Part shown: positions 31,715 through 48,631 of the stretch, piece after piece
Layout: every line of letters begins with the position of its first letter
Position numbering within the stretch: the first letter of the stretch is position 1
From: Desulfovibrio cuneatus DSM 11391
Lineage (GTDB): Bacteria; Desulfobacterota; Desulfovibrionia; Desulfovibrionales; Desulfovibrionaceae
NCBI RefSeq assembly: GCF_000430005.1
Contig: NZ_AUCY01000026.1
Location: 1 to 48,631, forward strand
Direction: 5' to 3'
DNA: 48,631 nt
Made by a program: the position numbers and the translations under genes
Notes under the pieces: generated by a model
What the model was told of the DNA's origin: nothing
The model's database searches: none
The model's input: only the letters and a program-made list of their open reading frames with translations

Positions 31715-32423
31715 GTGGCCAAGGGACGCAGTACTTGCAAGCCTACGGCACCATTAGCTAAAAGATATTTAGCCTCCATAATTGCAGCCAGTTATAGCAT
31801 CGTGTTGACATCTTGAACGTGATACCGTAGGTTATTGGCTATACAGCTTGACGCTATTCATGCAACTCCGCCTGCAATGGGCCGGAGGGAATAGATGTGC
31901 TCTTTGGTATGCACACAAGTGCTTTGGCGGGTGGTTCTCATTCGCTTTTTTGCATGCGTTTTCATTGCAGAAAAAGTACATTTCCCTACGACACTATGTC
32001 TCTTGCAGAGGTGTTTCATGCGCATTATTTGTGCTATGCCTACAACGTATTCTTGCCCTGGCCTCTATAGTATCCTTCATGCAATTCGTGCTGTTTTTTT
32101 GCGCACCATAGGGGTGTGGCCTGTGCCTATGGGGTGGGCTCGTATACCGTTTTGTGCGTATGTGTTCTCGCTTTCTGTATGCCTAATTTCGCTGAAAATT
32201 TTCATTATGGTACCACAACAAAGGGTTTGGAAGAGTTTCTCTTTCATGCCCTGTGTTGTGGTACCTTTTTTTGCGTTGTGATTTTTTTGTGCTGCACGGG
32301 GTAACAGACGTGTTTGTGGTGCTGCCTGCACCCTTGCCAGCACCCATGGTAAGCAATGGCTTTGTGGTTGTGCCACCAGGCCAGCATTGTGTTCTCTGTT
32401 TTGTGAACGTATAAGGGGGATTT
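31715..32423. other. Long non-coding region upstream of the envelope cluster
   Basis: About 700 bp, AT-richer than its surroundings, with no supported gene. It contains the 57-nt hairpin at 32209-32265. This stretch must include the promoter of the cluster that starts at 32424, and may encode a small RNA ending at the hairpin. Confidence 0.45.
32209..32272 (+). terminator. Long hairpin with T-run, possible small-RNA terminator
   Basis: GGTACCACAACA (32209-32220) pairs perfectly with TGTTGTGGTACC (32254-32265). Further pairing continues inside (GGG with CCC, then GAAGAG with CTCTTTC). Seven T residues follow. No plus-strand gene ends nearby, so it may terminate a small RNA or guard the downstream cluster against read-through. 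Confidence 0.65.
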
Positions 32424-34787
32424 GTGAACAAACGCCTTTCTCGTTATTGTATGGGTTTGCTGTGTGCTGTTGTACTGGGATCAGGGTATTCTTCCTCAGC
32501 CTTGGGGGCTACAGTAACCCAGCCTTTTGCCCCGGCAGGCACGCAAGAACCTGCCAAACCGCAAGAAACACAAGGGGACGTTGCCCCGGCACCCAAGGGG
32601 GCAGCAGTGCCTGCCCCTGCCACACCCGCCGCCAGTGCCCCGGCCCCCAGTGCGGCCAATGCCACGGCCCCGGGTGGTGAAATGACTGCCCTGCAAGAAG
32701 GCGCTGCTCCTGCTGCTCCTGCCGCTGCCCCTGCTGAGCAGGCAAAAGCCCAGGCCACGGGTACCGGGCGGCGTGTGCCCGTAAAGGTGAAGGAAGGGTC
32801 TATTTTACCCCTGCGGGTGCTGACCCGGCCCATGGCGGCGCTCTATAAAACGTCAGATGAAAAAAGCGAAGTGGTGCAAAGCAATTTGCCCGTGTTTATG
32901 CCATTTTACGTGTACACCCAACCGGGGGGCGAAGATGTTGCCGCAGAAACAGGCTGGTATGAGGTGGGCCCGGATAACCGGGGCACGGTAACAGGCTGGT
33001 TGAAGTCGGCTGACGTGTTTGCCTGGAAGCAAGCCATGTGCCTTACGTACACCCACCCGGAGCAGCGCAAGCCAGTGCTGATGTTTGATGGTCCCAAAGC
33101 CCTGGAAGCATTGCTGGGGCAAAGCGCTGAAGCGCGGACCGAGGCTGTGAAAGGGCTTTATACCACCATTGATTCCGGCAATATTCCGCAAAATTTCAGT
33201 ATTGTTTCGGTGGAACCAAAACAGGCCGTTGACATAACCCGGCAGTTTTACCTGTTGCCCATTCTTGACCACAAGGTCATTCAGCTTGATGGCCGGGAAG
33301 CCCGCTTGCTGGAGCTTGCGGCCGTGAGTGGTGGGGGTGAAGATGCACGGGAAAAAACAGACATTCGGGAAAACGCCAAGTTTGCCGCTGCTGCCACCCA
33401 AACGTCTGCCGAGGCAGCCGGGCAGGTGGCACAAAGCCTGAAAATTGATGTGGTGTGGGTGCTAGATACCACCCGCAGTATGGGGCCTTATATTGACGCC
33501 ACCAAAGAAGTGGCCGGGGCTGTTTCGGCAAAGCTGGCGGAAAACAAGGCCATTGCAGAAAACATCCGGTTTGGGGTGTGGGGCTACCGCGACCCGGTGG
33601 AAGCCATTCCCGCCATTGAGTACACAACCAAAAACTATACTCCGCAATTGCAAGATATTCAAAGCTTTCTTGCCACCATGGGCACTGTCAAGGAAACAAA
33701 AATCGATTCCGTAGACTTTCCTGAAGATATGTTTTCCGGTGTGAGTGACGCCATTACCCAAACCCAATGGACGCCGGGGGCAATGCGCATTGTGGTGCTG
33801 GTGGGCGACGCCCCCGCCCATGAACTGGGGCACAAATGGAACCTTTCCGGCTATGGGGAAGAAACGCTGCGTACCCTGGCAACGGAACATAACATAACGT
33901 TGCTTGGCATTCAGGTACGCCCAAAAGGCGCTGCAAAATATCAGGCCAAGGCAGAAGAGCAGTTCAAGGTACTCTCCCTTGGCAAGGGTAGCGATATTCC
34001 CGCCTATTATTCCATTCAGGGCACAGACATGGGCTCTTTTGCCAAAACCACAGGCACCATTGTGGCTTCCCTGCAAGGCCTTTTGGAAAAAGCTTCCAGC
34101 AACACACTCAGCGCAGCCCTTACCAAAGAAGGGGGCCTGGTGGAAGAAGCCACCGGGGAAATGGCCGCTTTGAAAGAAGGCGAGGCAGCCCCTGCCACCA
34201 CGGAAACAAGTAAAGCCATGAACGAAGGCACTGCCGGGCTTGCTCAAGCCTTAAAGGCCGCTGTGGTGCAATGGGTGGGCAGCAAGGCAGAAGCAAAACC
34301 CCCGCGTGATGTTGTGGCCTGGGTGGTAGATAAAGATTTGACAGACGCTGCCCGGCAGTCGCTGGAAGTGCGCCTGCTTATAAGCAAGCGCCAGTTAGAT
34401 TCCCTGGCCACCCTGCTTAATGAAGTTATTGCAGCAGGCCGCACAGGGCAGATTAGTGGCGACGACTTTTTCACCTCGCTTCAGGCGGCTTCGGTTGTTG
34501 CCTCCCGCGACCCGAACCTGCTGAAAAGCGCCAAAACCATTGGGCAAAGCGGGCTTATTCCAGGATTTTTGGAAGGGTTGCCCTACCATAGCCGTCTTAT
34601 GGATATGAGCAATGAGCTGTGGAACAGTTGGAACGTGACAGAGCAAGACCAGTTTTTAAGTGAAATGGATTCCAGAGTGCGTGCCTACAAATCGTTGCAC
34701 GACGCGCCGGAAGGATGGATTACCTTGAACCCTGGCGCTGATGCCGATGAAAGTGTGTATCCTATTCCCCTGGAACTGTTGCCATGA
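32424..34787 (+). CDS. Exported von Willebrand factor A protein (periplasmic, PpkA-vWA-like)
   Basis: A 787-aa protein. A signal peptide (1-29, GTG start) is followed by an Ala/Pro-rich linker (about 30-115). An SH3-like region comes next (about 125-215: SILPLRVLTRPMAALYKTSD ... TGWLKSADVFAWKQAM), then a vWA domain (about 341-545) with the MIDAS motif VLDTTRSM (Asp348, Thr350, Ser352) and VGDAPAHELG. The tail is helical. The SH3-like plus vWA pair resembles the periplasmic part of the type VI secretion kinase PpkA, but there is no kinase or membrane span; a signal peptide replaces them. The stop codon overlaps the start of the ABC ATPase gene by 4 nt. GGGGG lies before the start. Confidence 0.85.
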   Translation: MNKRLSRYCMGLLCAVVLGSGYSSSALGATVTQPFAPAGTQEPAKPQETQGDVAPAPKGAAVPAPATPAASAPAPSAANATAPGGEMTALQEGAAPAAPAAAPAEQAKAQATGTGRRVPVKVKEGSILPLRVLTRPMAALYKTSDEKSEVVQSNLPVFMPFYVYTQPGGEDVAAETGWYEVGPDNRGTVTGWLKSADVFAWKQAMCLTYTHPEQRKPVLMFDGPKALEALLGQSAEARTEAVKGLYTTIDSGNIPQNFSIVSVEPKQAVDITRQFYLLPILDHKVIQLDGREARLLELAAVSGGGEDAREKTDIRENAKFAAAATQTSAEAAGQVAQSLKIDVVWVLDTTRSMGPYIDATKEVAGAVSAKLAENKAIAENIRFGVWGYRDPVEAIPAIEYTTKNYTPQLQDIQSFLATMGTVKETKIDSVDFPEDMFSGVSDAITQTQWTPGAMRIVVLVGDAPAHELGHKWNLSGYGEETLRTLATEHNITLLGIQVRPKGAAKYQAKAEEQFKVLSLGKGSDIPAYYSIQGTDMGSFAKTTGTIVASLQGLLEKASSNTLSAALTKEGGLVEEATGEMAALKEGEAAPATTETSKAMNEGTAGLAQALKAAVVQWVGSKAEAKPPRDVVAWVVDKDLTDAARQSLEVRLLISKRQLDSLATLLNEVIAAGRTGQISGDDFFTSLQAASVVASRDPNLLKSAKTIGQSGLIPGFLEGLPYHSRLMDMSNELWNSWNVTEQDQFLSEMDSRVRAYKSLHDAPEGWITLNPGADADESVYPIPLELLP

Positions 34788-35557
34788 CCTCAAGTGCTGC
34801 CAGCTTTGATGCAGCAAACCTTGTGCTTGATGTGCAGAACATAGTGAAACGCCGGGAAAAAGGGGGCATGTGCTTTGAATTGCGCGTGCCCCGCCTGCGG
34901 GTGCATGTGGGTGAATTTGTGGCTGTGGTGGGGCAAAGCGGGTGTGGCAAATCCACCCTTTTGGACATGCTGGGCCTTGTTCTTACCCCTGATTCTGCCT
35001 CCAGGTTTGCCCTGCACCCCCGCTTTGCCAACAAGGGGCATGTTGCCATTGACCTGCGCCACAAACCGGAAAGTGTTCTTTCCTTATTGCGGCGCAGGGA
35101 AATTGGCTATGTGCTGCAATCAGGCGGGTTGCTTCCCTACCTCACGGTGGGGGACAACATTCTGCTGCCCTGTCTTATGAACAAATATCCGGCAAAGCCT
35201 TCACAGGAGCAAGCCCATGCCTTGGCTGCGCTTTTGGACATAGCCGAACACTGGGAAAAGAAGCCTGCCCACCTTTCCGGGGGGCAGCGCCAGCGCGTGG
35301 CCATTGCCAGGGCCTTGACCCATGAACCGGGCCTTGTGCTGGCAGACGAACCCACCGCTGCGGTGGACGCCCTCACCGCCACGGAAATACGTGATGCCTT
35401 TAAACGTGCCGTGCAGCAGCAAGGCATAGCCCTGGTTATGGTCACCCATGACCGCCCGCTTATTGAAGGGTATGCAGACACCATGGTCACCTTTACGGTG
35501 GAACGCCCCCACAGCGGGCTCACGGTTTCCACCCTGGTGGAGGTGCCCCATGCCTAA
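34784..35557 (+). CDS. ABC transporter ATPase, TagT/LolD-like
   Basis: A 257-aa cytoplasmic ATPase with every motif intact: Walker A GQSGCGKST (50-58), Q-loop LQSGGLLPYLT, signature LSGGQRQRVAIARAL (164-178), Walker B LVLADEPTA and the switch His in MVTHD. It belongs with the MacB/LolD/FtsE ATPases, which work with FtsX-type permeases and usually move signals or lipoproteins rather than solutes. An unusual insertion of about 25 residues (TPDSASRFALHPRFANKGHV) follows Walker A. Its ATG overlaps the vWA stop by 4 nt, so it is translationally coupled to a periplasmic protein, as in TagT-type systems. Confidence 0.9.
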   Translation: MTSSAASFDAANLVLDVQNIVKRREKGGMCFELRVPRLRVHVGEFVAVVGQSGCGKSTLLDMLGLVLTPDSASRFALHPRFANKGHVAIDLRHKPESVLSLLRRREIGYVLQSGGLLPYLTVGDNILLPCLMNKYPAKPSQEQAHALAALLDIAEHWEKKPAHLSGGQRQRVAIARALTHEPGLVLADEPTAAVDALTATEIRDAFKRAVQQQGIALVMVTHDRPLIEGYADTMVTFTVERPHSGLTVSTLVEVPHA

Positions 35558-35634
35558 CAGATTCACGGGCCCAGGCAGGGGCAGGCGCTGTGTGCAGGTT
35601 GCCTGCCAAACACAGCAAACGCCATGGGGGAAGC

Positions 35635-37569: not shown

Positions 37570-37661
37570 GGGGGGACACAAAGTAACTGAGCGTTTCCCG
37601 AAATATAGGTAATTCGTGCTTCCTCAACAGCCTATGCGCTGTACATTTTCAGGAGTGAATC

Positions 37662-39275
37662 ATGCATTTTTTTGCAGTAGGTATTTTGGCAAGTATGTTG
37701 GCCTGTATGCCTGTGGCCCATGCGGCAGAGCCGTGTAACCCCGCGCCACTGGTAGGGGATTTGGTGCTGCCTGGGCCTAACAACCAGTGCTTTGTGTTTC
37801 GCCCCGTGCGTATTGGGGCCGGGGGCAACCCCCTGGAGGCCCAAAAGCGTTTTACCCTAGGCAACCCCAACGACTACCTGGGGGAAAAGCCCACGGAAAT
37901 AACGTTGGGGGGGAGCTTTGCCATGCAAGGGGAAGCTGCCAGCGACTGGCTGTATTATATGGGCAAGTACGAAGTAACAGAAGGGCAGTACTATTCTCTT
38001 ATGGGGTTGCCCAAGGGCATGGACCAAAGCAAGTTGCAAAGCCTGCTGCCTGTAAGTGGTATTTCTGCCTTTGAGGCCATGGCCTTCATGGAAAAGCTCA
38101 ATAGCTATTTATATACGCATGCCATGGAACAAATGCCCAAGGTGCGCTCTGTACCGGGTTTTGTCCGCTTGCCCACTGAGCCGGAATGGGAATTTGCCGC
38201 ACGGGGCGGTAATGAAACCCCTGCCAACCTTTTTGGTAACGATGTGCCCTATGAGGGGCCACTTGCAGCCTATGAATGGTTTTCCGGGCCTTCTTCTTCC
38301 CACAACAAGGTACAGCCCATTGGCAAGCTGAAGCCCAACGCCCTTGGTGTGCACGACATGCTGGGCAACCTCAGCGAGTTGATATTATCCCCGTATCATA
38401 TTGACTATTATCAGGGGCGTCCCGGTGGGTTCACTTCCCGTGGGGGCAACTACTTTACTCAAGAAAAAGACATGCGCACTTCCCAGCGCCAGGAAGAACC
38501 TTTGTTCATAGGCACAGTGGAAAAGGGCATGAAGGAAAACCGCAAGGCCACCATGGGCTTGCGCCTTGCCCTGGTGGCCCCGGTGCTGCCAGACAGAGAG
38601 GCCATGCAGGAAATTAAGGACGCCTGGACAGACTATGCTGAGGGGGATTTGCGCAAAACCACCCCGGCGGGGCGTTCCACCGCTCCGGTAGACATTAAAA
38701 CCCAGGCCAGGGCGGAAGGGGTTGAAGGGGCTGTGGAACTATTGCGTGCCTATGTTGCCAGTGCCAATGCCCCGGAAGGGGTGCGGCAGGCGGTGGCTTC
38801 CGTGCAGGGCACCCTGCGCGATGTGAATGCCATTCGCCGGGAAACAGACAAGCGTATTTCCCAGGCTTTTGTGGACGTTGCCACCAAAACCGGGGCGCGC
38901 CTTGGCCGTGAAATTGAAAAATTACCCAAGCTGGCAGCCCTTGTGCAAAGCGCCAAAGATTCAGGGAACAGCACAAACCTGGAACGCTATGCCCGCATGG
39001 TGGAAGGGGTTGAGGGCAATATAAACACCGATATTGCCGACCTTTATACCATTATCCAGTCCCTTGCCAGCCTGAACCACGACCTGGTGGAAAATGCCTT
39101 TGCCGACCATTTGAATTACCTTAATGACCCTGCCAGAAAAGAAAAAGCCCTGTGGCCACGGGCGGCATTGCCTGTGGTGAAAGGGCTGTACGCCACCTTT
39201 TTCCAGAATAAAGGCATTCAGTCTGAAGCTATGCGCAAAGAACTGGAAGCCATTAAGATTGTTTCCCCTGAATAA
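37662..39275 (+). CDS. Periplasmic formylglycine-generating-enzyme-fold protein, TagR-like
   Basis: A 537-aa exported protein (signal peptide 1-21, ending PVAHA). The FGE/SUMF1 fold occupies about residues 75-305: YYMGKYEVTEGQYYSLM, FVRLPTEPEWEFAARGG, NALGVHDMLGNLSEL, SRGGNYF and TMGLRLAL. No sulfatase gene is nearby, so it is probably a binding protein rather than a formylglycine-generating enzyme. TagR of Pseudomonas, which acts with TagS/TagT on PpkA, has this fold. The C-terminal 230 residues are a helical extension of unknown role. AGGAG lies 8 nt before the ATG, and it starts 92 bp after the permease gene. Confidence 0.88.
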   Translation: MHFFAVGILASMLACMPVAHAAEPCNPAPLVGDLVLPGPNNQCFVFRPVRIGAGGNPLEAQKRFTLGNPNDYLGEKPTEITLGGSFAMQGEAASDWLYYMGKYEVTEGQYYSLMGLPKGMDQSKLQSLLPVSGISAFEAMAFMEKLNSYLYTHAMEQMPKVRSVPGFVRLPTEPEWEFAARGGNETPANLFGNDVPYEGPLAAYEWFSGPSSSHNKVQPIGKLKPNALGVHDMLGNLSELILSPYHIDYYQGRPGGFTSRGGNYFTQEKDMRTSQRQEEPLFIGTVEKGMKENRKATMGLRLALVAPVLPDREAMQEIKDAWTDYAEGDLRKTTPAGRSTAPVDIKTQARAEGVEGAVELLRAYVASANAPEGVRQAVASVQGTLRDVNAIRRETDKRISQAFVDVATKTGARLGREIEKLPKLAALVQSAKDSGNSTNLERYARMVEGVEGNINTDIADLYTIIQSLASLNHDLVENAFADHLNYLNDPARKEKALWPRAALPVVKGLYATFFQNKGIQSEAMRKELEAIKIVSPE

Positions 39276-39371
39276 TAGTGCCTACGGGCGTCGGGCTTTG
39301 CCCACAGCAGGGGAAATTTCAAGTGTTATGCAGTGTAACGACTATTGGCTAACTTTTTCTAGGAGGTTTGT

Positions 39372-40040
39372 ATGCGTAAAGGAGTTGTGCTGGTTATGGT
39401 GCTGGCGTTGTTGGCAACCCAGGTAAGTGGCTGTGCCAATATTAAAAATGACAGCACCCGCACCAAAACTGAAGGAGCCCTCGTAGGTGGTGCAGTGGGG
39501 GCCGCTGCCGGGGCAGGTGTTGGGGCCGCCATTGGTGGCGGGCGTGGGGCGCTTATTGGGGCCGTGGTGGGTGCTATTGTAGGCTCTATTGGTGGCCATG
39601 CCTATGGCACCCACGTGGCCAATGAAAAAGCGCGCTATGCCAATGAAGAAGCATGGTTGGATGCTTGCCTTTTGCAGGCTGAAAAAACAAACAATGAGTT
39701 GCGCCAATACAACAAGGTCATGGCAGGGGAAATAGCTGCCCTGGACAAGAAAACGCAGGTCTTGCAAAAAGCCTTGGCAGCTAAACAGGCAGACAAAAGA
39801 GAGCTGAGGGCTGACGCTAGACGCATTCAAGAATGCATTGAAAGCAACAATGAACGCATTGCGTATATTGGCAATGAGCTGACAAATCAGGAAAAAGTGC
39901 TGGCAGACGCCAAATTGAACCACAGAAGCAATGATGCTGCGCTCATTGAAGCGGAAATTTCTGCCCTGCGCCGCCATAAGGCCCAGTTGGAAGAAACCAA
40001 CAAACAGCTTGCTGCCATGTCTACCCGTATTTCTGTGTAA
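39372..40040 (+). CDS. Lipoprotein with glycine-zipper and coiled coil
   Basis: A 222-aa lipoprotein. The signal peptide ends in the lipobox VSGC (Cys21). A glycine-zipper region follows (about 34-75, alternating small residues such as VGGAVGAAAGAGVGAAIGGG and LIGAVVGAIVGSIGG) that can insert in a membrane. The rest (80-222) is a long coiled coil (KKTQVLQKALAAKQADKREL). AGGAGG lies a few nt before the ATG. Lipoprotein TagQ is part of the Pseudomonas Tag branch and one of the two lipoproteins here could fill that place, but no sequence kinship is evident. Confidence 0.8.
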   Translation: MRKGVVLVMVLALLATQVSGCANIKNDSTRTKTEGALVGGAVGAAAGAGVGAAIGGGRGALIGAVVGAIVGSIGGHAYGTHVANEKARYANEEAWLDACLLQAEKTNNELRQYNKVMAGEIAALDKKTQVLQKALAAKQADKRELRADARRIQECIESNNERIAYIGNELTNQEKVLADAKLNHRSNDAALIEAEISALRRHKAQLEETNKQLAAMSTRISV

Positions 40041-40146
40041 GACCAATTCCACAGGCTCTTAGTCTTGTTAGTGTGCTGTAAAAGCATAAGGGAACGCCAC
40101 CGGGGTTCCCGGAACTATCCATAGAATTTTTCAGGAGGTAATGAAT

Positions 40147-40641
40147 ATGCCGAGAATTCTTGTTCTGTGTTTGTGTGCGATGTTGCTTGGGGGATGTCAA
40201 ACAGGGCGTACCACAGACCCAAGCCAAGGCGGATTGTTCAGCTATTCGCCGGAGGCATACAAACAGCGGGCTGCGCAGCGCCAGGAGCGCTTGAAAATGT
40301 TGCAGCGCGAACAAATTGCCGAGGAACAGCAAAAGGCTGCCCTCACCCAAACGGCTGCGGAGAAAAAAGCGGCCCACACAAAGGCCCAGCAGCAGTTGCG
40401 CCAGGCAGGGCGTGAAATAACAGGCTTGAAAAAACAGCTTGAAGGGTACAAGGCCACCAATGAAGCCCAGCAAGCCGCCCTGACTGAAATGCTTGTCCGG
40501 CGGGCCGTGCTGGAAGGGGACCTGAAGGCCCTTGGCAATGGCAGCGGGTCAGACCCGGCTGTGTTGCAAGTGGAAGCCGAACGCTTGCGGCGCGAAGTGG
40601 AACGCCTGACCAATGACGCCGAGGCTCTTAGCGCCATATGA
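40147..40641 (+). CDS. Coiled-coil lipoprotein
   Basis: A 164-aa lipoprotein with lipobox LGGC (Cys near residue 17) followed by Gln-Thr. After a short linker the rest is a continuous coiled coil (about 38-160: RLKMLQREQIAEEQQ, AGREITGLKKQLEGYKA, AERLRREVERLTNDAEAL). AGGAGG lies 8 nt before the ATG at 40147 and only 2 nt before the alternative at 40141, so the former is preferred. Its stop overlaps the start of the S41 peptidase gene by 4 nt, which implies coupled synthesis. Confidence 0.8.
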   Translation: MPRILVLCLCAMLLGGCQTGRTTDPSQGGLFSYSPEAYKQRAAQRQERLKMLQREQIAEEQQKAALTQTAAEKKAAHTKAQQQLRQAGREITGLKKQLEGYKATNEAQQAALTEMLVRRAVLEGDLKALGNGSGSDPAVLQVEAERLRREVERLTNDAEALSAI

Positions 40642-41735
40642 GGACATTCGCTCTTTGCATGGCGTTTCTGGGGTGTGCGGCCTGCCCGTTGGCGCAGGCC
40701 GCCCCCCAGCACGACTGGCAACGCCTGGAAGCAGCGGCAGCCATGGCCGAAAAAGAAAGCCTTGAGCCTGTGCTGCACCAAAAGTCCGTTTCTGCTGCCA
40801 TTACTGCCTATTTGCAGACCCTTGACCCCTATTCTTCCTATATTTCCCCGGCAGAAGCAAGGCAATTGAAAGAAGACGCCGGCAACACGTTTGGCGGTGT
40901 GGGCATGGATATTATCCGCAATAGTGATGGCATGCTGTACTGCCTGCCCCATGCGGGTAGCCCGGCGGCCAACGCGGGCATTGGCTATGGCGACGTGCTG
41001 CGCGCCGTGGATGGAGCCTTTTTGCATGATAAACCGCTGAGCGTTGTGCAGCATTTGGTGCGCGGCCCTGCACTCAGCCCGGTGCGCCTTTTGGTGGCAG
41101 GGGTTGATGGGGTGAAGGAAGTGACTGTCACCCGGGAAATGGTGCAGCCCCCCAGCGCAGAACTGGTTGCCGGGCAGGGGTTTTACCGTATTCGGCTTAC
41201 CCGGTTTGATGCAAATACTCTTCCCCAACTCAAGGCAGCGCTGGCCAGGGTGCCTGCTGGTATGCCCCTGGTGCTTGATGTGCGGGGCAATGTTGGCGGC
41301 GACCTTGAAGCCGCCTTGCAAAGTGCTTCATTATTCTTGCCTCCGGGAACACCCCTAGTGACCATTGTTAAAAAAGACGCCTTGCCCGATGTACAACTTT
41401 CCGGCGGGGGGGGCACAGAGCCTGCCGGGCTTGTGGCGGTATGGCAAGATGCATTCACCGCCAGTGCGGCGGAAGTGTTTGCCGCAGCCTTGGCCCATAA
41501 TGGTAAGGCCGTGCTTGTGGGGCAACGCAGCTTTGGCAAGGGCAGGAGCCAGGTGGCTGTGCCTGCCAAAGATGGGGGCATATACCTTATTACCAACGCA
41601 GAACTTTTGCCCCCCAATGGCATAAGCTACCACGGCAAAGGGCTGGAGCCAGATTTGCTTGTGGGTTCACGCTCTGCCACGGTGCAGGCTGACTTTGAAA
41701 GGAGAACGTATGAAGCCCTTGGTAAAACACACTAA
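40638..41735 (+). CDS. Exported S41 (CtpA-type) peptidase with PDZ domain
   Basis: A 365-aa periplasmic protease: signal peptide (1-21), an N-terminal helical part with LDPYSSYISPAEA, a PDZ domain (about 85-170, GGVGMDI then GSPAANAGIGYGDVLRAVDG) and the S41 catalytic domain. The substrate motif LDVRGNVGGDLEAAL, the nucleophile Ser276 in FTASAAEVFAAAL and the general base Lys301 in RSFGKGRSQ are all present, so it should be active. CtpA peptidases trim C-termini and activate or degrade envelope proteins. Its coupling to a lipoprotein gene upstream and a membrane protein gene downstream (26-nt overlap) suggests a target within this cluster. Confidence 0.9.
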   Translation: MRTFALCMAFLGCAACPLAQAAPQHDWQRLEAAAAMAEKESLEPVLHQKSVSAAITAYLQTLDPYSSYISPAEARQLKEDAGNTFGGVGMDIIRNSDGMLYCLPHAGSPAANAGIGYGDVLRAVDGAFLHDKPLSVVQHLVRGPALSPVRLLVAGVDGVKEVTVTREMVQPPSAELVAGQGFYRIRLTRFDANTLPQLKAALARVPAGMPLVLDVRGNVGGDLEAALQSASLFLPPGTPLVTIVKKDALPDVQLSGGGGTEPAGLVAVWQDAFTASAAEVFAAALAHNGKAVLVGQRSFGKGRSQVAVPAKDGGIYLITNAELLPPNGISYHGKGLEPDLLVGSRSATVQADFERRTYEALGKTH

Positions 41736-42186
41736 GTGGTGGCTTGGCCTTGGTGTGCTAGTCATTGCGGCTGTTGTTATTCTTTTAAGCCGCCAAGCCA
41801 CCCCTGCCCCGCCGGATATTCCAGTGCTGGTGGCACGGTTTGAGCGGGCCGTTGTCCTTGGTTGGGGGTGGTTGCATGCGGAAAATACCCAAGTGAGCAG
41901 CTTGGCCCACACGGGCAACGACGTTACTGTGGCGTTGGTGTATACTGTGGTGGTGGATAAAGACGCCGCCAGCCTGAACCAGGAAGAAAAAGATCGCTTC
42001 GCCCAGTTTTTGCCCATGTGTGCCAGCGTGCCCTTGCAACAGGGCAGCCGTTGCCAGGTTACGGAAACCATGCAGTTTACCCAAACACCGGAATTTGGCC
42101 TCATGCCTGCTGTTTTTGTGGCCCATAGGCCGGAAATGCTGCCCGCCATTGCCGGGAAAACTGCTGTGGGTGCGGGGAAAGAGTAA
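41710..42186 (+). CDS. Small membrane-anchored envelope protein
   Basis: A 158-aa protein of unknown family. A single N-terminal transmembrane segment (about residues 10-29, WWLGLGVLVIAAVVILL) anchors a small periplasmic domain with two Cys (CASVP, RCQVTE) that could form a disulfide. The domain is beta-rich (VTVALVYTVVVDKDA). AAGGAG lies 5 nt before the ATG, which lies 26 nt inside the end of the peptidase gene, so the two are translated together. It may be a partner or substrate of the peptidase (inference from position only). Confidence 0.75.
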   Translation: MKPLVKHTKWWLGLGVLVIAAVVILLSRQATPAPPDIPVLVARFERAVVLGWGWLHAENTQVSSLAHTGNDVTVALVYTVVVDKDAASLNQEEKDRFAQFLPMCASVPLQQGSRCQVTETMQFTQTPEFGLMPAVFVAHRPEMLPAIAGKTAVGAGKE

Positions 42187-42406
42187 GGGGCGGCAGTAGA
42201 CTATAGGCAACTCGCTTTTACTCTGGTCGGAAAATTTGGTTCACATTGAGTATGGAAAGAAATGGTGGGATTATGGCGCTTTTGCAGGTGCCGTAACCAC
42301 ATGAGTCCAAAGGGTGGGCTCCCAGTGATTTACGTGAACGATTGTGTTGGAGTGCCAGTGGTGTTTTGTTCTTACCATCTCATTAACGTCATTAAAGGAG
42401 ACTGTC

Positions 42407-43087
42407 ATGGGTATTTCTCGTTGGTTTATGCAGTTGGTTGTTTGTTTTGGTGTTGTGCTTGGCGCGGGCTTTGCCAAGGCCGAGGAAGTGCCTGCAACGG
42501 TGGCAGAAGAAACCGCAGGCATGAAGCAAAACGTCAATTCGCGCATGCAGGAATTGCTTAATGCTCCGGCTGGGGTGTTTGATGTGGAGTTTCAGGAAGG
42601 GCAGTTGCGCCGCTTGAAAATTAAGGGAGAAGCAGAAGTTTCCACTGCCCTGAAGGGCGCACGGGGCGACCGCATGGCACGGGAAAAAGCCCAGCGTGCA
42701 GCAAAGGTTTCCTTTACCCAGTTTTTGAATGAGAACGTGCTTGTGGTGGAATCGGGCTCGGAAGGCGTGATGCTGAAGGAAAAAGACGGCACGGAAACTG
42801 CCGAAGTGCTGCAAGTGAGCCAAACCACGTTTGCCAGCCATTCCAGCAGTTTTTTGCGCGGACTTGTGGTGCTGCTTGACCATGTGGAAGGGGAAGGGGC
42901 AAACCGCAAGGCTGTGGTGGTTATGGGCTGGTCTACAAAAATGATGCAGGCCGCACAAGGCGCGCAAGGTGCCATGGATACCAGTCGGCAAGAACAGGGG
43001 GCCAGCAAGCCCGCAGCCCCACAGCCTGCCCCGGCAACACCCAACACAGGCACCAAAACCCGTATGGGGAATGTGGAAAATTTTTAA
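42407..43087 (+). CDS. Exported protein of unknown function
   Basis: A 226-aa protein with a signal peptide (1-25, ending GFAKA). The mature part contains the pattern GDRMAREKAQRAAKVSFTQF followed by LNENVLVVE and a strand-rich segment ending VVVMGWSTKMMQAA. This pattern is reminiscent of LPP20/FlgT-like exported domains, but I would not assign it. The last 40 residues are Pro/Ala-rich and disordered. AAGGAG lies 6 nt before the ATG. A 220-bp gap separates it from the previous gene. Confidence 0.75.
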   Translation: MGISRWFMQLVVCFGVVLGAGFAKAEEVPATVAEETAGMKQNVNSRMQELLNAPAGVFDVEFQEGQLRRLKIKGEAEVSTALKGARGDRMAREKAQRAAKVSFTQFLNENVLVVESGSEGVMLKEKDGTETAEVLQVSQTTFASHSSSFLRGLVVLLDHVEGEGANRKAVVVMGWSTKMMQAAQGAQGAMDTSRQEQGASKPAAPQPAPATPNTGTKTRMGNVENF

Positions 43088-43162
43088 TTTGCCGAACAAC
43101 ATACCTTGCCATGGCGCTACTCTGCTTTGGCACTGTATAAACGGCGTGCATAAGGAGAAACC

Positions 43163-44365
43163 ATGAAATTTCGCCTGTATGTTTCTGGAATTGTGCTGTT
43201 GGCTATGGTGTGTGGTGTTGGTGCATTTGCCCACGCTGCCAGCCCTGCCCCCAGCCAAAAGGCTGATGAGCGTGAAGTGGTGGCAACCGGGGTAGGGGCC
43301 ACGGAAGATGCCGCAAAACGGCAGGCCTACCGCAGTGCCATTCAGAATGTGATTGGAGCCATGGTGGTGGCGGAAACCTTGGTGGAAAACGACGCTGTGG
43401 TGCGCGACAACGTGCTTTCCCATAGTGACGGCTACATTACCAAGGTGGTCCAGGTGGGGAAAACCCGCCCGCTGGAAGGGGGGCTGGTGGAAGTCACCAT
43501 GCGCGTTACGGTGAAAAGCGACCAGTTGAAGGAAAAACTCAAGGCCGAAAATATTGCCCTGGTAGCCGTGGATGGGGAAAGCCTGTTTGTGAAAAAGGCT
43601 ACCACCCAGGAAAAGGCTAAAGATGCGGCGGGCATTATTGCAGATGCCATAAAAGATTTGCCCGCCAGCCTCATTACAGCAAAAGCAGATACGGAAAAAG
43701 CGCAAATAGAAACATCCGGCACGGCGAATACTGTTACTATCCCCATGACGGTTTCTGTAGATATGCCCGCGTTCAAGAAATTCACCACCGACTTGAAAAG
43801 TACTGCAACGCAGTTGGGCTTTGATGTAAAGCCCATGACAGCCGAGTTGAAATCGCGTGACTGTAAGGATAGCGACCCAAGATTTATTGTGGAACCACAT
43901 CCTCTTCTGTGGAAATGGCGCAAAGAAAAAGAACTTTTCACCATTGCCATAGCAGAAATGGCCGACTGTGCTAGCTTGCAAAGCCGCTGGAGCATTATTC
44001 CGGTTTCCAAAGAAGTTGTGCAAGCATTTTCCTCTTTTCCTCAAGGGGTTGTCTTGCAAATCGATTTATTGGATGAAGCAGGTGCTGCGGTGGTTTCGCA
44101 GCGTGTTCCTTTTCTCTCTAAGGATAGAGATGATATTTCATGGGATATTGCGCGATTAATTGAAAGGAGTGGGGTTGTGGCAATAGCACCTACCTTAAGA
44201 TCAACATTTAACCTCCATGAAGCGGCAGGGAAATTTAGTTTTGGCGGTCGGGGGTCTGATAAGCGCCAGATGCCGGTTACCTTCCTGCTTTCTGATGCTG
44301 AACTGCGTGCGGTGAAAGGTGTGCAAACAAAAGTGATTAATGCTGCACCTGCTGTGAGAAAATAA
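43163..44365 (+). CDS. Exported protein, paralogue 1 (FlgT-N-like N-terminal domain)
   Basis: A 400-aa protein with a signal peptide (1-25, ending AHAAS). Residues about 37-130 form a conserved domain: VVATGVGATEDAAKRQAYRS, AIQNVIGAMVVAETLVEND, VLSHSDGYITK and LVEVTMRVTVKSDQL. It is tentatively like the N-terminal domain of flagellar FlgT and LPP20 proteins. The rest (130-400) is unrecognised. It is clearly paralogous to the product of 47206-48426, which shares the domain almost residue for residue and a similar overall length. AAGGAG lies 5 nt before the ATG. No flagellar gene is nearby, so a role in the local envelope complex is more likely. Confidence 0.75.
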   Translation: MKFRLYVSGIVLLAMVCGVGAFAHAASPAPSQKADEREVVATGVGATEDAAKRQAYRSAIQNVIGAMVVAETLVENDAVVRDNVLSHSDGYITKVVQVGKTRPLEGGLVEVTMRVTVKSDQLKEKLKAENIALVAVDGESLFVKKATTQEKAKDAAGIIADAIKDLPASLITAKADTEKAQIETSGTANTVTIPMTVSVDMPAFKKFTTDLKSTATQLGFDVKPMTAELKSRDCKDSDPRFIVEPHPLLWKWRKEKELFTIAIAEMADCASLQSRWSIIPVSKEVVQAFSSFPQGVVLQIDLLDEAGAAVVSQRVPFLSKDRDDISWDIARLIERSGVVAIAPTLRSTFNLHEAAGKFSFGGRGSDKRQMPVTFLLSDAELRAVKGVQTKVINAAPAVRK

Positions 44366-44386
44366 TTACGTACTGGAAGGTAGAGC

Positions 44387-45739
44387 ATGAAGTGGTTCTG
44401 TAATGCTTGTTGTATGCTTGGCATAATAGCCATCCTAGCCAACTTCCCCCCTGCCCATGCAGCCCCGCCGCCTGCCTGGTTGCTACAAGAAGTGGCAAAC
44501 CCCGCCAGCCTGCACACGCCGGGGGTGTACCCCCTTTCGCAAGGGCGGGTGCTGGCGGTAGGGGCAGGGCGCATAACCAGCAAGCTTCGGGAAGATACGG
44601 CACAGCGCCTTGCCCGCAGCATGGCGGAACGCGACGCCAAGGCCCGGCTGGCTCGCGCCCTATTCAGCAAGCAGATACAGGCCGAGGCCCCGCGCCAGTT
44701 TACCGTGCAGTTGCACGGGGCCCAAACGGTGTTTGCAGAACCTTCCCCTGTAACTGCTGGCACAATGGTGGCAGGGCTTGTGGTGCCACGGGGAAACGTA
44801 ACGCTTATTCCCCTGCCTTTGCACATGGCGCGTGAGGTACGCGTGGCTCCTATTGTGGAGCAGCTCTTTGCCAGCGACCCGGTGCTGGAAGAAGGGGGCG
44901 GCAGGGTATTTCCCCAGGAGCAGGGGTTTATAGCCCTTGGGGTAGGCTTTGCCGCCTTGCCGGAAGCGCCGGGTGCAAAAGCGGAACAGGCAACCCGCAC
45001 CGTGGCAACCCTGGCAGCCCGAGCCGCGCTAACTGAAGCCGTGTTCGGGGTGGAGGTGCTGGCGGAACAAAAAACAATAGATATTGTGGCACAAGGGCCG
45101 GAAGGCATAGTACTGCGCCAGTGGGCCAAAAGTAAAAGCAAGGAAGAAGTGGCAGGCGCGTTTAAAGCTGCCCAGCAAGCCGGGGAATGGAAAACCGACG
45201 ATGGCCACCTTGCCGTGGTTGTGCTGGTGGCTCACCCACCTCTCCCCTTGGAAGAACAAGGCGATTTCGGAACGGCTGCCCAAGACATACAACACAGGTT
45301 CATAAGCCTTCCGGACATGGCCGTGGAAGACGCTTGGCAAGAAGCCTATGCCGCACGGCCCTGGTTGTGGGGCGGCGGGGCAAACCTGTATGAAGCGGAC
45401 GGAAAAGTATTTCTGCTGGTGGTGGCTGCGGCCCCTTTGCAGGGGAACGCTGCTCAAGATGCCACCACAACCCCGCTGGTGGCGGAAACAAAGGCAAGGG
45501 CCGCGGCGGTGCGCTATCTTGCCGGCATAACGGTTAAGGCCTCCACCCTGGAGGTGGAAGAAAGCTTGCTGCAAGGGGTTGAAATGACTGAAACCATGCA
45601 AACATCGCTACACAAACTGGTGAGGGAAAGCGCCCAGGGAGTGGTGCAGGGGCTACGCAAGGTGGGCTCGTGGAAGTCGGAGGACGGGAAGTTGTTGTAT
45701 TACGCCACAGTGGTTCCATTGCCTGCCATGGACCAATAA
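44387..45739 (+). CDS. Exported protein with threefold internal repeat
   Basis: A 450-aa exported protein (signal peptide about 1-26, ending AHAAP). Three segments share a beta strand followed by an Ala/Arg-rich helix: AVGAGRITS with RLARSMAERDAKARLARALF (about 57-93), ALGVGFAAL with TLAARAALTEAVFGVEV (about 183-225), and LLVVAAAPL with ETKARAAAVRYLAGITV (about 345-388). This resembles LPP20-type repeats and the N-terminal domain of the neighbouring paralogues. GGAAGG lies before the ATG. It starts 21 nt after paralogue 1 and ends 14 nt before the TIR gene. Confidence 0.7.
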   Translation: MKWFCNACCMLGIIAILANFPPAHAAPPPAWLLQEVANPASLHTPGVYPLSQGRVLAVGAGRITSKLREDTAQRLARSMAERDAKARLARALFSKQIQAEAPRQFTVQLHGAQTVFAEPSPVTAGTMVAGLVVPRGNVTLIPLPLHMAREVRVAPIVEQLFASDPVLEEGGGRVFPQEQGFIALGVGFAALPEAPGAKAEQATRTVATLAARAALTEAVFGVEVLAEQKTIDIVAQGPEGIVLRQWAKSKSKEEVAGAFKAAQQAGEWKTDDGHLAVVVLVAHPPLPLEEQGDFGTAAQDIQHRFISLPDMAVEDAWQEAYAARPWLWGGGANLYEADGKVFLLVVAAAPLQGNAAQDATTTPLVAETKARAAAVRYLAGITVKASTLEVEESLLQGVEMTETMQTSLHKLVRESAQGVVQGLRKVGSWKSEDGKLLYYATVVPLPAMDQ

Positions 45740-45753
45740 AAGGAGTGTAGAAC

Positions 45754-47097
45754 ATGGGCTACCATGTGTTTGTCAGCTATTCCACTCAAGATAAGCTGTT
45801 TGTGGATGCCTTGGTGAACCGGCTGGAAAGCGCGGCCATTCGCTGCTGGTACGCCCCGCGTGATATTCCCCCAGGCACCACCTGGCCTGCTGCCATTGCC
45901 CAGGCCATTAAAGATGTCCCCTTGATGCTGTTGGTGTTTTCCGGCCATGCCAATGCCTCGCAGGAGGTTTCCCGGGAATTGACCTTGGCCTCCAGCAACA
46001 AGTGCCTTGTTATTCCTGTGCGCATTGAAAATGTGTTTCCCAGCGTGGAAATGGAATACCATTTAAGCAACCGCCACTGGCTGGATGTGTATGGGCTGGA
46101 GGTGGAAGCAGCCATAAACAGTGTGCTGGAAACATTGCAACGCCACAACGAATTGTTTCAGCATGAAGTAAACCCGTTGGGGGTGGTCCCCCCCCTGGAG
46201 CCCAACGACAACGCCAGCGCTGTTCATAATCGCGTAGGGAACAAGGGGGCCGCTCCCCCAAGTTCTGCACCACGTTCTGTGGCAGGGCCTTCTCCTTTCA
46301 CCTCGTGGCTGCGTACTGTGGTTTCAGAGGTCAAAGGCGGCGCTTGTTCCTTGGGGGCACTCACCGCAAACAGGAATATGCGCAGGGTGCTGGCAGGTGT
46401 GGCTCTGGCTGCCTGTGCAGCGGGCGCTGTTTTTTTGTGGAACGGACGGGAAATTCCACTGCCTGCTCCGGTGGCAGGGGCCACCACTTTGGGGCAACTG
46501 GTGCAGAAGGCGGAACAGCAAGACCTGGCTGCCATGCGTGGCCTTGGGGAATATTACCTTGATGTGGGCAAAGCCCCGGAAAAAGCTGTGCCGTGGTTGC
46601 AAAAAGCTGCGGAGCAAGGCAGTGCTGCCGCAATGGTGCTTCTGGGTGATATGCACTACGGCGGCCTTGGAATACCCAAAAACATGCAGCAGGCCGTCGC
46701 ATGGTACCGCCGTGCAGCAGATGCCCATTTCCCCGCAGGCCAAACAAGCCTTGCCAGCCTGTATGAACAGGGCATGGGGGTGGAACAAGACTTAGCCCAG
46801 GCCCGTTTCTGGTACGAAAAAGCCGCTGCGCAAGGTGATAACCAGGCCCGGTATGCCCTTGGTGCGCTCTATGAAAATGGCGAAGGTGTGCCCGCAAGCT
46901 ACGCCACGGCCTTGCGCTGGTATAAGGCCGCTGCGGCAGAAGGCTATGCCACGGCCCAATATAAAATGGGGGCCATGTACCACATGGGAATGGGCGTACA
47001 GAAAGACGTGGCAGAAGCCAGACGCTGGCTACAGCTTGCGGTAGAACAGGGCGACGCCGAAGCAAAAGAACTGCTTGGGCAAATACAAGCCCAATAG
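45754..47097 (+). CDS. TIR - transmembrane - Sel1 repeat protein
   Basis: A 447-aa protein. Residues 1-130 form a TIR domain with the box HVFVSYSTQDK, CWYAPRDIPPGTTW and FSGHANASQEVSREL, in which Glu75 is in the position of the catalytic Glu of NAD-cleaving TIR domains. After a Pro/Ser-rich linker comes one transmembrane helix (211-229) preceded by arginines, which predicts the TIR domain in the cytoplasm and the C-terminus in the periplasm. Residues about 255-445 are five Sel1 repeats (for example AAMVLLGDMHYGGLGIPKN). AAGGAG precedes the ATG. It is the only gene of the cluster with both a cytosolic signalling domain and a periplasmic protein-binding domain. Confidence 0.88.
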   Translation: MGYHVFVSYSTQDKLFVDALVNRLESAAIRCWYAPRDIPPGTTWPAAIAQAIKDVPLMLLVFSGHANASQEVSRELTLASSNKCLVIPVRIENVFPSVEMEYHLSNRHWLDVYGLEVEAAINSVLETLQRHNELFQHEVNPLGVVPPLEPNDNASAVHNRVGNKGAAPPSSAPRSVAGPSPFTSWLRTVVSEVKGGACSLGALTANRNMRRVLAGVALAACAAGAVFLWNGREIPLPAPVAGATTLGQLVQKAEQQDLAAMRGLGEYYLDVGKAPEKAVPWLQKAAEQGSAAAMVLLGDMHYGGLGIPKNMQQAVAWYRRAADAHFPAGQTSLASLYEQGMGVEQDLAQARFWYEKAAAQGDNQARYALGALYENGEGVPASYATALRWYKAAAAEGYATAQYKMGAMYHMGMGVQKDVAEARRWLQLAVEQGDAEAKELLGQIQAQ

Positions 47098-47205
47098 AGC
47101 TTGGTCAGTCTGAGGCCATAGAGCGTGTTGCCTTTTGCTAGAGGACATTCTATTCTACGAAACATTTTTGTGTTCCTGTAGCTGATGAGAGAGGAGCATA
47201 CGCCA

Positions 47206-48426
47206 ATGGGAGAGCTATATATGCTTGTAAGGCAGCATGTTGCCTGTTGTTTATCACTACGCATGAGTGCACAAGGTATAGCCTTGTTCATAAGGCCGTT
47301 CATTCTTGTGGCTGCAAGTTGTTTTTTGTGTGTAGCGCTTTCTTCTGCTGCGTTGGCCGGAGCGACTGCAGAACGGGAGGTGCTCTCAACAGGCCTTGGC
47401 CTTACCGAAGAGGCCGCCCGTAAACAGGCTTTTCGCAGTGCCGTGCAAAACGTTATTGGTGCCATGGTGATTACCGAAACCCTTGTGCAAAATGAAGAAT
47501 TGGTGCGGGACAAAGTTCTTTCCCACAGTGATGGTTACATTAGCAAGGCAACGCAGGTTGGCCCTGCCCGCCCCCTGGAAGGGGGCCTTGTAGAAGTGAC
47601 CATGCGAGTCACGGTGAAAAGTGACAGGCTCAAGGCGAAACTTTCCGATGAAAATATTTCACAGGTACGCTTTGATGGGAACGTATTGTTTCAGGCGGCG
47701 CTAGCCCAGATGCAACAGCAACAGGAGGCGGCCACAAGCCTACTGGCGCTGCGCAAACCGCTCCCCGCCAGCCTTGTGCGCATAGAGGCACATAGCGACA
47801 AGGCATCCCAAAAACTTGCCAAAGGCATGGTGCAGCTTGCCTTGCCCATTTCAGTTTCCATTGACGAAGTCGCCTATGGGGCTATGGCCCAACAACTCAC
47901 CAGCTTGCTGGAAGGCATGGGCCATAAGCGCGTGCAGGCTACCCTTGCCTTGAGTTCGGAAGGAGAACTGTACACCCAGGGCTTGCTGCAAAAAATTGGT
48001 GGCAGCCCGCAACAGACCGATGGGAATGCGCTTTTTTTGCTGGGCGTGTGTGAACTGGTGCAGGCGGAGAAAAAAAGCTCGCGCTGGAGTTTTTTCTGGG
48101 TTCCCCAGTATGTGCTGGATAGTTTTCGGGGGAATGGGCGGTTAATCATACAAGTGGAATTGCTGGATAAAGAGGGCAAGGTAGTTGCCGTGCAGGAACA
48201 ACACATGGGCGACGACAGCTACGCGGCTGTTATTCAAACAGGTTTTCCGGCAACAGACCCTTTGCGTGTGGTTGTGGCACCGCGTTTTAATTTGGTGAAT
48301 AAAAAGTTGTTTCTTGACTCTTCATTCAACACAAGCCCCCAGCAAAAACAGCTCACCTTTTCCCTTTCTGAGCAGGAACTGGCCCGCCTTGTTGGGGTGC
48401 GTAGTTCTGTTACCAATGCGTTGTAA
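47206..48426 (+). CDS. Exported protein, paralogue 2 (FlgT-N-like N-terminal domain)
   Basis: A 406-aa product homologous to that of 43163-44365. The shared N-terminal domain reads VLSTGLGLTEEAARKQAFRS, VQNVIGAMVITETLVQNE, VLSHSDGYISK and RPLEGGLVEVTMRVTVKSD. A hydrophobic export segment (about 28-50, ending ALAGA) is preceded by an unusually long N-terminus. I chose the ATG at 47206 because GGAG lies 9 nt upstream, but an ATG at 47263 would give a normal signal peptide. It follows the TIR gene after 108 bp. Confidence 0.72.
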   Translation: MGELYMLVRQHVACCLSLRMSAQGIALFIRPFILVAASCFLCVALSSAALAGATAEREVLSTGLGLTEEAARKQAFRSAVQNVIGAMVITETLVQNEELVRDKVLSHSDGYISKATQVGPARPLEGGLVEVTMRVTVKSDRLKAKLSDENISQVRFDGNVLFQAALAQMQQQQEAATSLLALRKPLPASLVRIEAHSDKASQKLAKGMVQLALPISVSIDEVAYGAMAQQLTSLLEGMGHKRVQATLALSSEGELYTQGLLQKIGGSPQQTDGNALFLLGVCELVQAEKKSSRWSFFWVPQYVLDSFRGNGRLIIQVELLDKEGKVVAVQEQHMGDDSYAAVIQTGFPATDPLRVVVAPRFNLVNKKLFLDSSFNTSPQQKQLTFSLSEQELARLVGVRSSVTNAL

Positions 48427-48487
48427 GGAGCAGTTGTTCATATAACCAGCCTGCCTGTGCAGGCGAAACCCAAGGAGATGATTGTAA

Positions 48488-48631
48488 ATGAAACGCGCTT
48501 TTTTACTCCCCTGCCTTGTGCTTGGTATGCTCTTGTGGGGCAGTGTGGCCCATGCAGAATGGACACCCATTACGGATGAAGTGGAAATAGATTACCAAAC
48601 CCACGTAATCCGCATTTTTGTAAGTGGTAAA
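48488..48631 (+). CDS. Exported protein, 5' part only
   Basis: The first 48 codons of a gene that runs off the window. AAGGAG lies about 10 nt before the ATG. The product starts with a clear signal peptide (MKRAFLLPCLVLGMLLWGSV, cleaved after AHA) and the mature sequence begins EWTPITDEVEIDYQ. The family cannot be told. It shows that the envelope cluster continues beyond the window. Confidence 0.7.
   Translation, partial: MKRAFLLPCLVLGMLLWGSVAHAEWTPITDEVEIDYQTHVIRIFVSGK

What the first reader, a model, noticed from the sequence alone, without database searches (positions are those of the whole stretch)
32424..48631. Envelope-sensing gene cluster built on TagT/TagS/TagR and a secreted PpkA-like vWA protein, with no secretion apparatus in view
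Seen: a signal-peptide vWA protein overlaps an ABC ATPase by 4 nt, followed by an FtsX-type permease with a huge periplasmic part, a periplasmic FGE-fold protein, two lipoproteins, an S41/PDZ peptidase, several exported proteins and a TIR-transmembrane-Sel1 protein, all on one strand. Known: in Pseudomonas type VI secretion, TagT (ATPase), TagS (FtsX permease), TagR (FGE fold) and lipoprotein TagQ act upstream of the kinase PpkA, whose periplasmic part has a vWA domain. Inference: this is a stand-alone descendant or cousin of that signalling branch, joined to a protease and a TIR output, that senses envelope damage or contact.
Basis: partly seen in the sequence, partly recalled or inferred. 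Interest (0 to 1): 0.82.

Follow-up and report, generated by a model that had tools for sequence, protein, structure and literature searches.

The report
Envelope sensor module with a protease
A set of seven bacterial genes looks like the damage-sensing part of a known bacterial weapon system, but here it stands alone and is paired with a protein-cutting enzyme instead of the weapon, which suggests that the sensor is a general-purpose part.

Summary
Genes vWA, ABC ATPase, FtsX permease, FGE-fold protein, Gly-zipper lipoprotein, second lipoprotein and S41 peptidase (32424-41735) form a block that recurs, whole or cut by contig ends, in 26 further loci compared. In 8 of 8 Pseudomonas-genus T6SS loci fetched, PpkA-TagT-TagS-TagR stand in the same order. 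The window vWA protein aligns with PpkA residues 391-990 (28%, 7e-82), its ATPase with TagT (41%), its permease with both ends of TagS. Kinship to that branch is shown. Kinase and apparatus are absent: no TssC or IcmF in the own genome; TssC in 6 of 18 genomes with the block. The block's vWA proteins form one clade apart from T6SS- and SrfABC-linked ones: a cousin, not evidently a descendant. All 27 permeases carry an extra insert; S41 is in 23 of 27 loci, its Ser/Lys dyad in 21 of 21 readable copies. The TIR protein and its exported neighbours were not found with the block elsewhere. Best reading: an envelope-perturbation sensor read out by periplasmic proteolysis; function untested.

The parts
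32424..34787 (+). vWA protein, 787 aa: signal-peptide-like N-terminus and small SH3-like beta domain (both by eye), proline/alanine-rich linker, vWA domain (~336-558), conserved C-terminal part; counterpart of PpkA residues 391-990
   Evidence: 28%, 7e-82; Z 18 to integrin I domains
34784..35557 (+). ABC ATPase, TagT counterpart (Walker A, signature and Walker B present by eye)
   Evidence: nearest DevA and LolD, under their cut-offs; 41% to the ATPase of Pseudomonas-genus T6SS locus L161
35635..37569 (+). FtsX/LolCE/MacB-type permease, TagS counterpart, with an extra ~224-aa insert (residues ~232-455); alternative GTG start at 35590
   Evidence: LolCDE/MacB folds; insert in 27 of 27 loci of this type
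37662..39275 (+). Exported FGE-fold protein, TagR counterpart; no cysteine within the FGE domain, so not a formylglycine-generating enzyme by that criterion (recalled)
   Evidence: 35% to the T6SS-linked FGE protein of Tistrella; 3 Cys in all
39372..40040 (+). Gly-zipper lipoprotein, in the position of TagQ
   Evidence: Gly-zipper_YMGG 9.3e-6, under cut-off; L161 has a Gly-zipper lipoprotein in that place; no direct BLAST similarity
40141..40641 (+). Second short lipoprotein, conserved with the block
40638..41735 (+). Exported S41/PDZ peptidase (CtpB-like); 4-nt overlap with the preceding gene; Ser and Lys of the dyad in place
   Evidence: 21 of 21 readable copies, window included, keep both residues
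41710..42186 (+). Small single-TM protein; relative only in L032 (same genus)
   Evidence: (45% over 116 aa)
42407..43087 (+). Exported protein; no Pfam match; not found with the block elsewhere
43163..44365 (+). Exported protein, paralogue of the one at 47185-48426 (38%) and of one on contig C56 (29%)
44387..45739 (+). Exported protein, LPP20-like only very weakly (0.18); not found with the block elsewhere
45754..47097 (+). TIR-TM-Sel1 protein (TIR 5-114, TM 212-230, Sel1 repeats after it); TIR in the window only; possible but unproven cytosolic output
47185..48426 (+). Exported paralogue of 43163-44365

Best explanation
The core (32424-41735) is a T6SS-free lineage of the receptor module known from the Pseudomonas PpkA/TagQRST pathway. 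SHOWN by sequence: homology and order of vWA-T-S-R with ppkA-tagT-tagS-tagR; absence of the kinase; presence of a second lipoprotein and an S41 peptidase with an intact dyad; a lineage-specific insert in the permease; one group in the tree; no T6SS found in the own genome. INFERRED mechanism: the Gly-zipper lipoprotein and the FGE-fold protein report outer-membrane or envelope perturbation. The LolCE/MacB-type ATPase-permease uses ATP-driven movement of its enlarged periplasmic part to load or reset the complex. The vWA protein, through its metal site, passes the state on. As it is a separate exported protein here and not the outer half of a kinase, the read-out is most likely made in the periplasm, by switching the S41/PDZ peptidase on a substrate. 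In two same-genus loci a sigma-70-like gene and a one-TM zinc-finger anti-sigma-like gene (both weak matches) lie just upstream, a plausible substrate there. In the window the local exported proteins or the TIR-TM-Sel1 protein could be the targets.
For: Homology; T6SS locus with separate kinase and vWA protein on Tistrella pTM1. Block conservation. S41 in 23 of 27 loci of the type; of the other four, three contigs end first (L031, L033, L142) and the fourth (L139) has an exported trypsin-like protein (PF13365, 6.7e-25) in that place. Dyad intact in 21 of 21; its Ser is the place where PDB chain 7rqh has Ala and 7rpq has Ser. Permease insert in 27 of 27, against whole permeases of 400-481 aa in the other types seen, one frame of 561 apart. 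One group in the tree. No T6SS in the own genome; other genomes. Envelope perturbation as the stimulus of the homologous pathway in P. aeruginosa: PMC11881912 and PMC6657622, passages seen. Sigma- and anti-sigma-like genes next to the block.
Against: No expression, interaction or phenotype data. The lipoprotein shows no direct similarity to the one in the Pseudomonas-genus locus (E 6.4); only Gly-zipper Pfam matches and the position agree. That the vWA protein controls the protease is a guilt-by-association inference. The anti-sigma-like gene was not found in the own genome (a search with no positive control) nor in loci other than L031 and L032. 6 of 18 genomes with the block do encode TssC somewhere, so cross-talk with a T6SS cannot be excluded there. 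In L053 and L057 another gene stands between the second lipoprotein and S41.
Confidence: 0.5

Rival explanations
1. A dedicated lipoprotein-trafficking or export machine: the ATPase-permease is a LolCDE/MacB-like pump for the two lipoproteins or the neighbouring exported proteins, with FGE-fold and vWA proteins as periplasmic adaptors and S41 as a maturation or quality-control protease. No signalling.
For: Best structural matches of the permease are LolCDE with Lpp, then MacB (TM-scores 0.2-0.5); the ATPase is nearest to the DevA and LolD families, under their cut-offs; exported proteins of varied kinds lie around these loci.
Against: The homologous TagTSR-PpkA set acts in signalling in P. aeruginosa (PMC6657622, PMC11881912, passages seen). 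The neighbouring exported proteins are not conserved while the core is.
Confidence: 0.2
2. One reading: the sensor feeds the TIR-TM-Sel1 protein, which depletes NAD or makes a signal when the envelope is breached (a defence or suicide switch).
For: Same strand, 14 nt behind the preceding gene; layout cytosolic domain-TM-Sel1 recalls the Tistrella T6SS kinase (kinase, TM, weak Sel1-like end) and the SrfABC slot protein; the Sel1 part matches a Sel1 protein beside S41 in L036 (47% over 64 aa, 1.6e-6) and the slot protein of L150 (36% over 107 aa, 2e-5).
Against: No TIR in any other locus held; Sel1 repeats are common and the window's lack the YDP motif seen by eye in the slot proteins; the TIR gene lies ~4 kb past the block; PADLOC matches are weak and partial.
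Confidence: 0.15
3. A regulator of a distant T6SS or SrfABC system encoded elsewhere.
For: TssC elsewhere in 6 of 18 genomes with the block; a same-genus genome (G012) holds both this block (L032) and an SrfABC-linked one (L049).
Against: TssC, IcmF and SrfB not found in the own genome (in the last no control rang); single-contig genomes G067, G082 and G094 have the block and no TssC.
Confidence: 0.05

Closest known systems
PpkA-TagT-TagS-TagR-TagQ (threonine phosphorylation pathway of Pseudomonas H1-type T6SS)
   Same: Homologous vWA region, ATPase, permease ends and FGE-fold protein, in the same order; a Gly-zipper lipoprotein follows in the one locus examined for it, L161.
   Different: No kinase domain, no PppA, TagF or Tss genes; vWA protein exported on its own; extra permease insert; second lipoprotein and S41 peptidase.
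tagQRST-ppkA genes beside srfABC in host-associated Deltaproteobacteria (PMC3608642, 2013, section 16 read)
   Same: The same sensor genes, mostly in genomes without T6SS machinery, in the same bacterial group.
   Different: Srf-linked blocks here (L043, L045, L048, L049 and many named loci) have the short permease and no S41; the window's block is a separate group with S41 and a longer permease, and none of the 80 named loci had both S41 and Srf. That the paper's clusters are this short-permease kind is inferred from their gene content.
CtpB-type S41 peptidases (PDB 4c2c, 7rpq)
   Same: S41 domain and Ser/Lys dyad.
   Different: Encoded with a sensor module; short (365 aa); PDZ match just under cut-off.
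LolCDE / MacB / FtsEX (type VII ABC systems)
   Same: Permease fold and ATPase family.
   Different: One permease gene, with an inserted periplasmic region that the ~400-aa LolC/E chains are too short to hold.

Membership tests
PpkA/TagTSRQ sensor module | ABC ATPase of the TagT kind | tested here: met
   41%, 1e-45 to the ATPase of Pseudomonas-genus T6SS locus L161
PpkA/TagTSRQ sensor module | FtsX/LolCE permease of the TagS kind | tested here: met
   39% over 227 columns and 35% over 189 columns at the two ends; extra insert between them
PpkA/TagTSRQ sensor module | Periplasmic FGE-fold protein (TagR) | tested here: met
   FGE-sulfatase 4.6e-24; 35% over 327 columns to the T6SS-linked protein of Tistrella
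PpkA/TagTSRQ sensor module | Outer-membrane lipoprotein TagQ | tested here: inconclusive
   Same place and weak Gly-zipper matches, but no direct similarity; localisation not testable
PpkA/TagTSRQ sensor module | vWA region of PpkA | tested here: met
   28% over 661 columns, 7e-82, PpkA 391-990, up to the common C-terminus
PpkA/TagTSRQ sensor module | Ser/Thr kinase domain joined or adjacent to the vWA protein | tested here: not met
   No kinase among the cluster's proteins; the genome's three kinase matches lie on contigs C38 and C11
T6SS regulatory locus | Adjacent or genomic T6SS apparatus | tested here: not met
   TssC and IcmF not found in the 96%-complete genome, E. coli control rings
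SrfABC cluster | SrfB/SrfC next to the module | tested here: not met
   None among the proteins around the module in the window; genome search PF07520 empty but without a ringing control
S41 C-terminal processing peptidase | S41 domain with Ser/Lys dyad | tested here: met
   97.5 bits against cut-off 24; dyad
Formylglycine-generating enzyme | Active-site cysteine pair (recalled) | tested here: not met
   No cysteine within the FGE domain
Known TIR defence systems (PADLOC-DB of 2023) | Full-length match to a TIR defence protein | tested here: not met
   Only weak partial matches; later systems are not in that library

The most novel reading that the evidence does not exclude
TagTSR plus the vWA domain of PpkA is not a T6SS part but an old, portable envelope-damage receptor that bacteria plug into different outputs: a kinase that fires T6SS, the SrfABC complex, and, in the window's lineage, a periplasmic protease (with a TIR protein added locally).
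Probability: 0.45. Interest if true: 0.8.

Novelty: new variant of a known kind. Interest (0 to 1): 0.62.

Why it matters
How the TagQRST/PpkA pathway senses attack is open: the introduction of PMC11881912 calls the mechanisms of local activation unresolved and its discussion speaks of an unknown signalling molecule (passages seen). A natural version with no kinase and no secretion machine separates the sensor from the weapon: it can be studied by itself, its conserved surfaces mark the sensing parts, and its protease gives a measurable read-out. It also ties the unexplained SrfABC 'virulence factors' to the same kind of receptor.

Tried and rejected
Rejected: (1) a T6SS just off the window: the window is a whole contig, and genome searches for TssC and IcmF were empty. 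(2) The whole 16-kb stretch as one conserved system: only 32424-41735 recurs. (3) The permease insert as a duplicate of the neighbouring periplasmic domain: no profile match (E 0.22 over 12 columns). (4) A shared exported N-terminal domain in accessory proteins: my HMM mixed unrelated rows (trypsin and ankyrin proteins) and, one weak match in L144 apart, matched only proteins it was trained on; not used. (5) Insertion of the cluster with the tRNA-Glu element: no 14-base repeat of the tRNA 3' region in the window, so undecided rather than shown.

Led nowhere: the first genome-contig scan, with the permease (30 stretches, none confirmed); PDB sequence search with the vWA protein (none); Casabona 2013 not held; consensus promoter and terminator scan (promoter-like sites no more than in shuffles); literature searches for the module with S41 gave no paper on it, PMC3608642 being the only one listed on tag genes beside srf. 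Not run: AU tests of clades, complex prediction.

By the markers used, T6SS genes lie in 1 of the 80 (L073, beside an SrfABC block) and S41 in 7 of 80; Pseudomonas PpkA-type loci were reached separately (22 of 59 genomes of that genus matched; 8 loci with long frames fetched). In the count of 18 genomes G076 is included on its long permease alone. Of 9 short-permease loci among the first twenty fetched, SrfB/SrfC were recognised in 4 (L043, L045, L048, L049) and not within view in 5. Tree: 82 rows, quick mode, LG+G4, no bootstrap; the program flagged long branches (L117, L123) and odd composition in 11 rows. Left out for want of a readable or long enough frame: L042, L044, L045, L062, L111, L114, L128, L135, L144. 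Dropped by me: L040, L058, L126, L129, L136, and 28 of 53 Srf-labelled rows. Four rows without a detected S41 (L031, L033, L139, L142) were put with the S41 group because of their other genes.
Full report
OBSERVATION. The window is one whole contig (G000:C21) of a 3.36-Mb, 76-contig, 96%-complete assembly. The vWA domain is under Pfam's cut-offs by sequence, but the predicted structure of the protein (mean pLDDT 69.9) matches integrin I domains over residues ~336-617 (Z 18.0, rmsd 2.7, 189 aligned). The permease model (mean pLDDT 78.7) matches LolCDE and MacB (Foldseek E 2.4e-13 and 3.1e-10).

WHAT IS CONSERVED. A search of 99 genomes with the permease gave matches in 38, some of them weak hits of other FtsX-type permeases (E 1e-6 to 1e-3). 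Twenty neighbourhoods were fetched and compared. Eleven are of the window's kind: vWA-ATPase-long permease-FGE-Gly-zipper lipoprotein-second lipoprotein-S41, where the contig reaches that far. Nine have a short permease; SrfB-SrfC-slot protein stand before the vWA gene in four of these (L043, L045, L048, L049), and SrfB and SrfC pass their Pfam cut-offs in L043. More of the window's kind came (L057-L063; L053, an Azospirillum plasmid). In a set of 27 loci of this kind, the window included, S41 is present in 23. Contigs of L031, L033 and L142 end first; L139 lacks it but has an exported trypsin-like protein in its place. In L053 and L057 one further gene stands between the second lipoprotein and S41. 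In 21 of 21 copies that cover the site, window included, the Ser and Lys are kept (L141 is cut by its contig end, L060 was not extracted by that script). All 27 permeases have the insert, 190-262 aa.

WHAT IS NOT. The TIR domain matched none of the other loci held, and proteins from 42407 on had no match there, Sel1 repeats apart; the small TM protein (41710-42186) recurs in L032 only. Many loci extend only a few kb past S41, so absence is 'not within reach'. The accessory genes near the block differ by locus: Sel1 proteins (L036, L037), propeller proteins (L039, L063), trypsin-like and ankyrin proteins (L139, L143).

LINK TO T6SS SIGNALLING. On Tistrella plasmid pTM1 the order is tssH-tagH-tssJ-tssK-icmH-tssM-tagF-PP2C-kinase-vWA-ATPase-permease-FGE-small protein-vgrG: kinase and vWA protein are separate neighbours. 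In a sample of the genus of Pseudomonas sp. KUIN-1 (G348), 22 of 59 genomes matched, some with frames of ~665-693 aa, more with frames of 968-1166 aa. All 8 long-frame loci fetched (frames 1000-1054 aa) show tssK-tssL-tssM-tagF-PP2C-kinase-vWA-ATPase-permease-FGE, i.e. ppkA-tagT-tagS-tagR; kinase and vWA were read as one ORF in the two loci printed, L161 and L164. In the one examined by Pfam a Gly-zipper lipoprotein follows (L161). This is the tagQ-tagR-tagS-tagT (PA0070-PA0073) and ppkA set of P. aeruginosa read in the other direction (gene numbers from PMC6657622, passages). Direct comparisons: vWA to PpkA residues 391-990, 28%, 7e-82; ATPase 41%, 1e-45; permease 39% and 35% at its two ends; FGE-fold protein 35% over 327 columns to Tistrella's. 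The lipoprotein shows no similarity. PpkA's outer vWA part was proposed as a sensor (PMC3224232, passages), and outer-membrane damage is signalled through TagQRST/PpkA (PMC11881912, passages).

NO APPARATUS. TssC and IcmF were not found in the own genome, with E. coli ringing as control. Of 13 genomes with the window's kind, TssC is in 4 (G003, G012, G075, G084), each on another contig. Of 5 more it is in 2 (G354, G357). The Azospirillum record also has TssC, ~0.73 Mb away. So 12 of 18 genomes with the block have no TssC match, among them three single-contig assemblies (G067, G082, G094).

TREE. A quick maximum-likelihood tree of 82 vWA rows puts the window's kind in one group (25 rows, SH-aLRT 100; 1 change against a mean of 21.8 in shuffles). 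T6SS-linked rows fall in two places (Pseudomonas genus; Tistrella) among SrfABC-linked and unassigned rows. The root is a midpoint; no AU test was run.

OTHER COUPLINGS. Of 68 named loci with 7 kb upstream, 50 have SrfB/SrfC; none of the 80 has both Srf and S41. The protein just before vWA is a kinase with one TM and a weak Sel1-like end in Tistrella, or in SrfABC loci a protein with a similar end and no recognised kinase domain in those scanned.

MECHANISM. Shown: homology, order, grouping, intact dyad, and no apparatus found. From established knowledge: LolCE/MacB-type permeases couple ATP use to periplasmic movement (general knowledge), and TagQRST acts upstream of PpkA (papers above). Inferred: the module senses envelope perturbation, and its read-out here is the S41 protease. 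In G003 and G012 a caspase-like fragment (DTCQSG motif by eye, seen in L032; no Pfam match), a weak sigma-70-like and a weak zf-HC2 protein with one TM lie directly upstream, which suggests regulated proteolysis of an anti-sigma factor there. The window has no such pair beside it, and the anti-sigma-like protein was not found in its genome (without a positive control).

VERDICT. A real, conserved, T6SS-free and protease-linked lineage of a known sensor module. Tag genes in T6SS-free relatives, beside srfABC, were noted in 2013 (PMC3608642, section 16); I found no paper on the S41-linked kind in the searches. Hence a new variant of a known kind, interest 0.62.

Noticed in passing
window 25201-32400: tRNA-Glu, tyrosine integrase (25562-26737, minus), MobA/MobL relaxase (28141-28812) and lower G+C (0.497 against 0.561 left of it): an integrated mobile element ends near the cluster; its right end was not found.
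   Followed up: partly
L051, L054, L055 and 50 of 68 named loci with 7 kb upstream: SrfABC operons, annotated as virulence factors, are followed by a slot protein and the vWA-ATPase-permease-FGE block, also in a Chloroflexota MAG (L095). 114 Klebsiella plasmid records hold the vWA gene; the Srf genes were looked at in one of them (L054).
   Followed up: partly
L052:10499-11926, L098, L110, L135, L054:10862-11881: The protein just before vWA shares a C-terminal region with a YDP motif (by eye), Sel1-like only weakly in Pfam, whether or not it has a kinase domain: a possible common coupling domain.
   Followed up: partly
L032:1-2260 and L031: Caspase-like fragment, weak sigma-70-like gene and zinc-finger one-TM anti-sigma-like gene directly upstream of the block in two same-genus genomes.
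   Followed up: partly
L099:9920-17202: Three successive vWA-homologous frames behind SrfB/SrfC in an Anaerobiospirillum MAG.
   Followed up: no
L166:11102-12705 (locus coordinates): ATPase match twice, with a second copy of the vWA protein's C-terminal end between, in a Pseudomonas-genus T6SS locus.
   Followed up: no
window 43163-44365 and 47185-48426; G000:C56:539-1600: Three paralogous exported proteins (38% and 29% to the first); the two in the window match no known family in Pfam.
   Followed up: no
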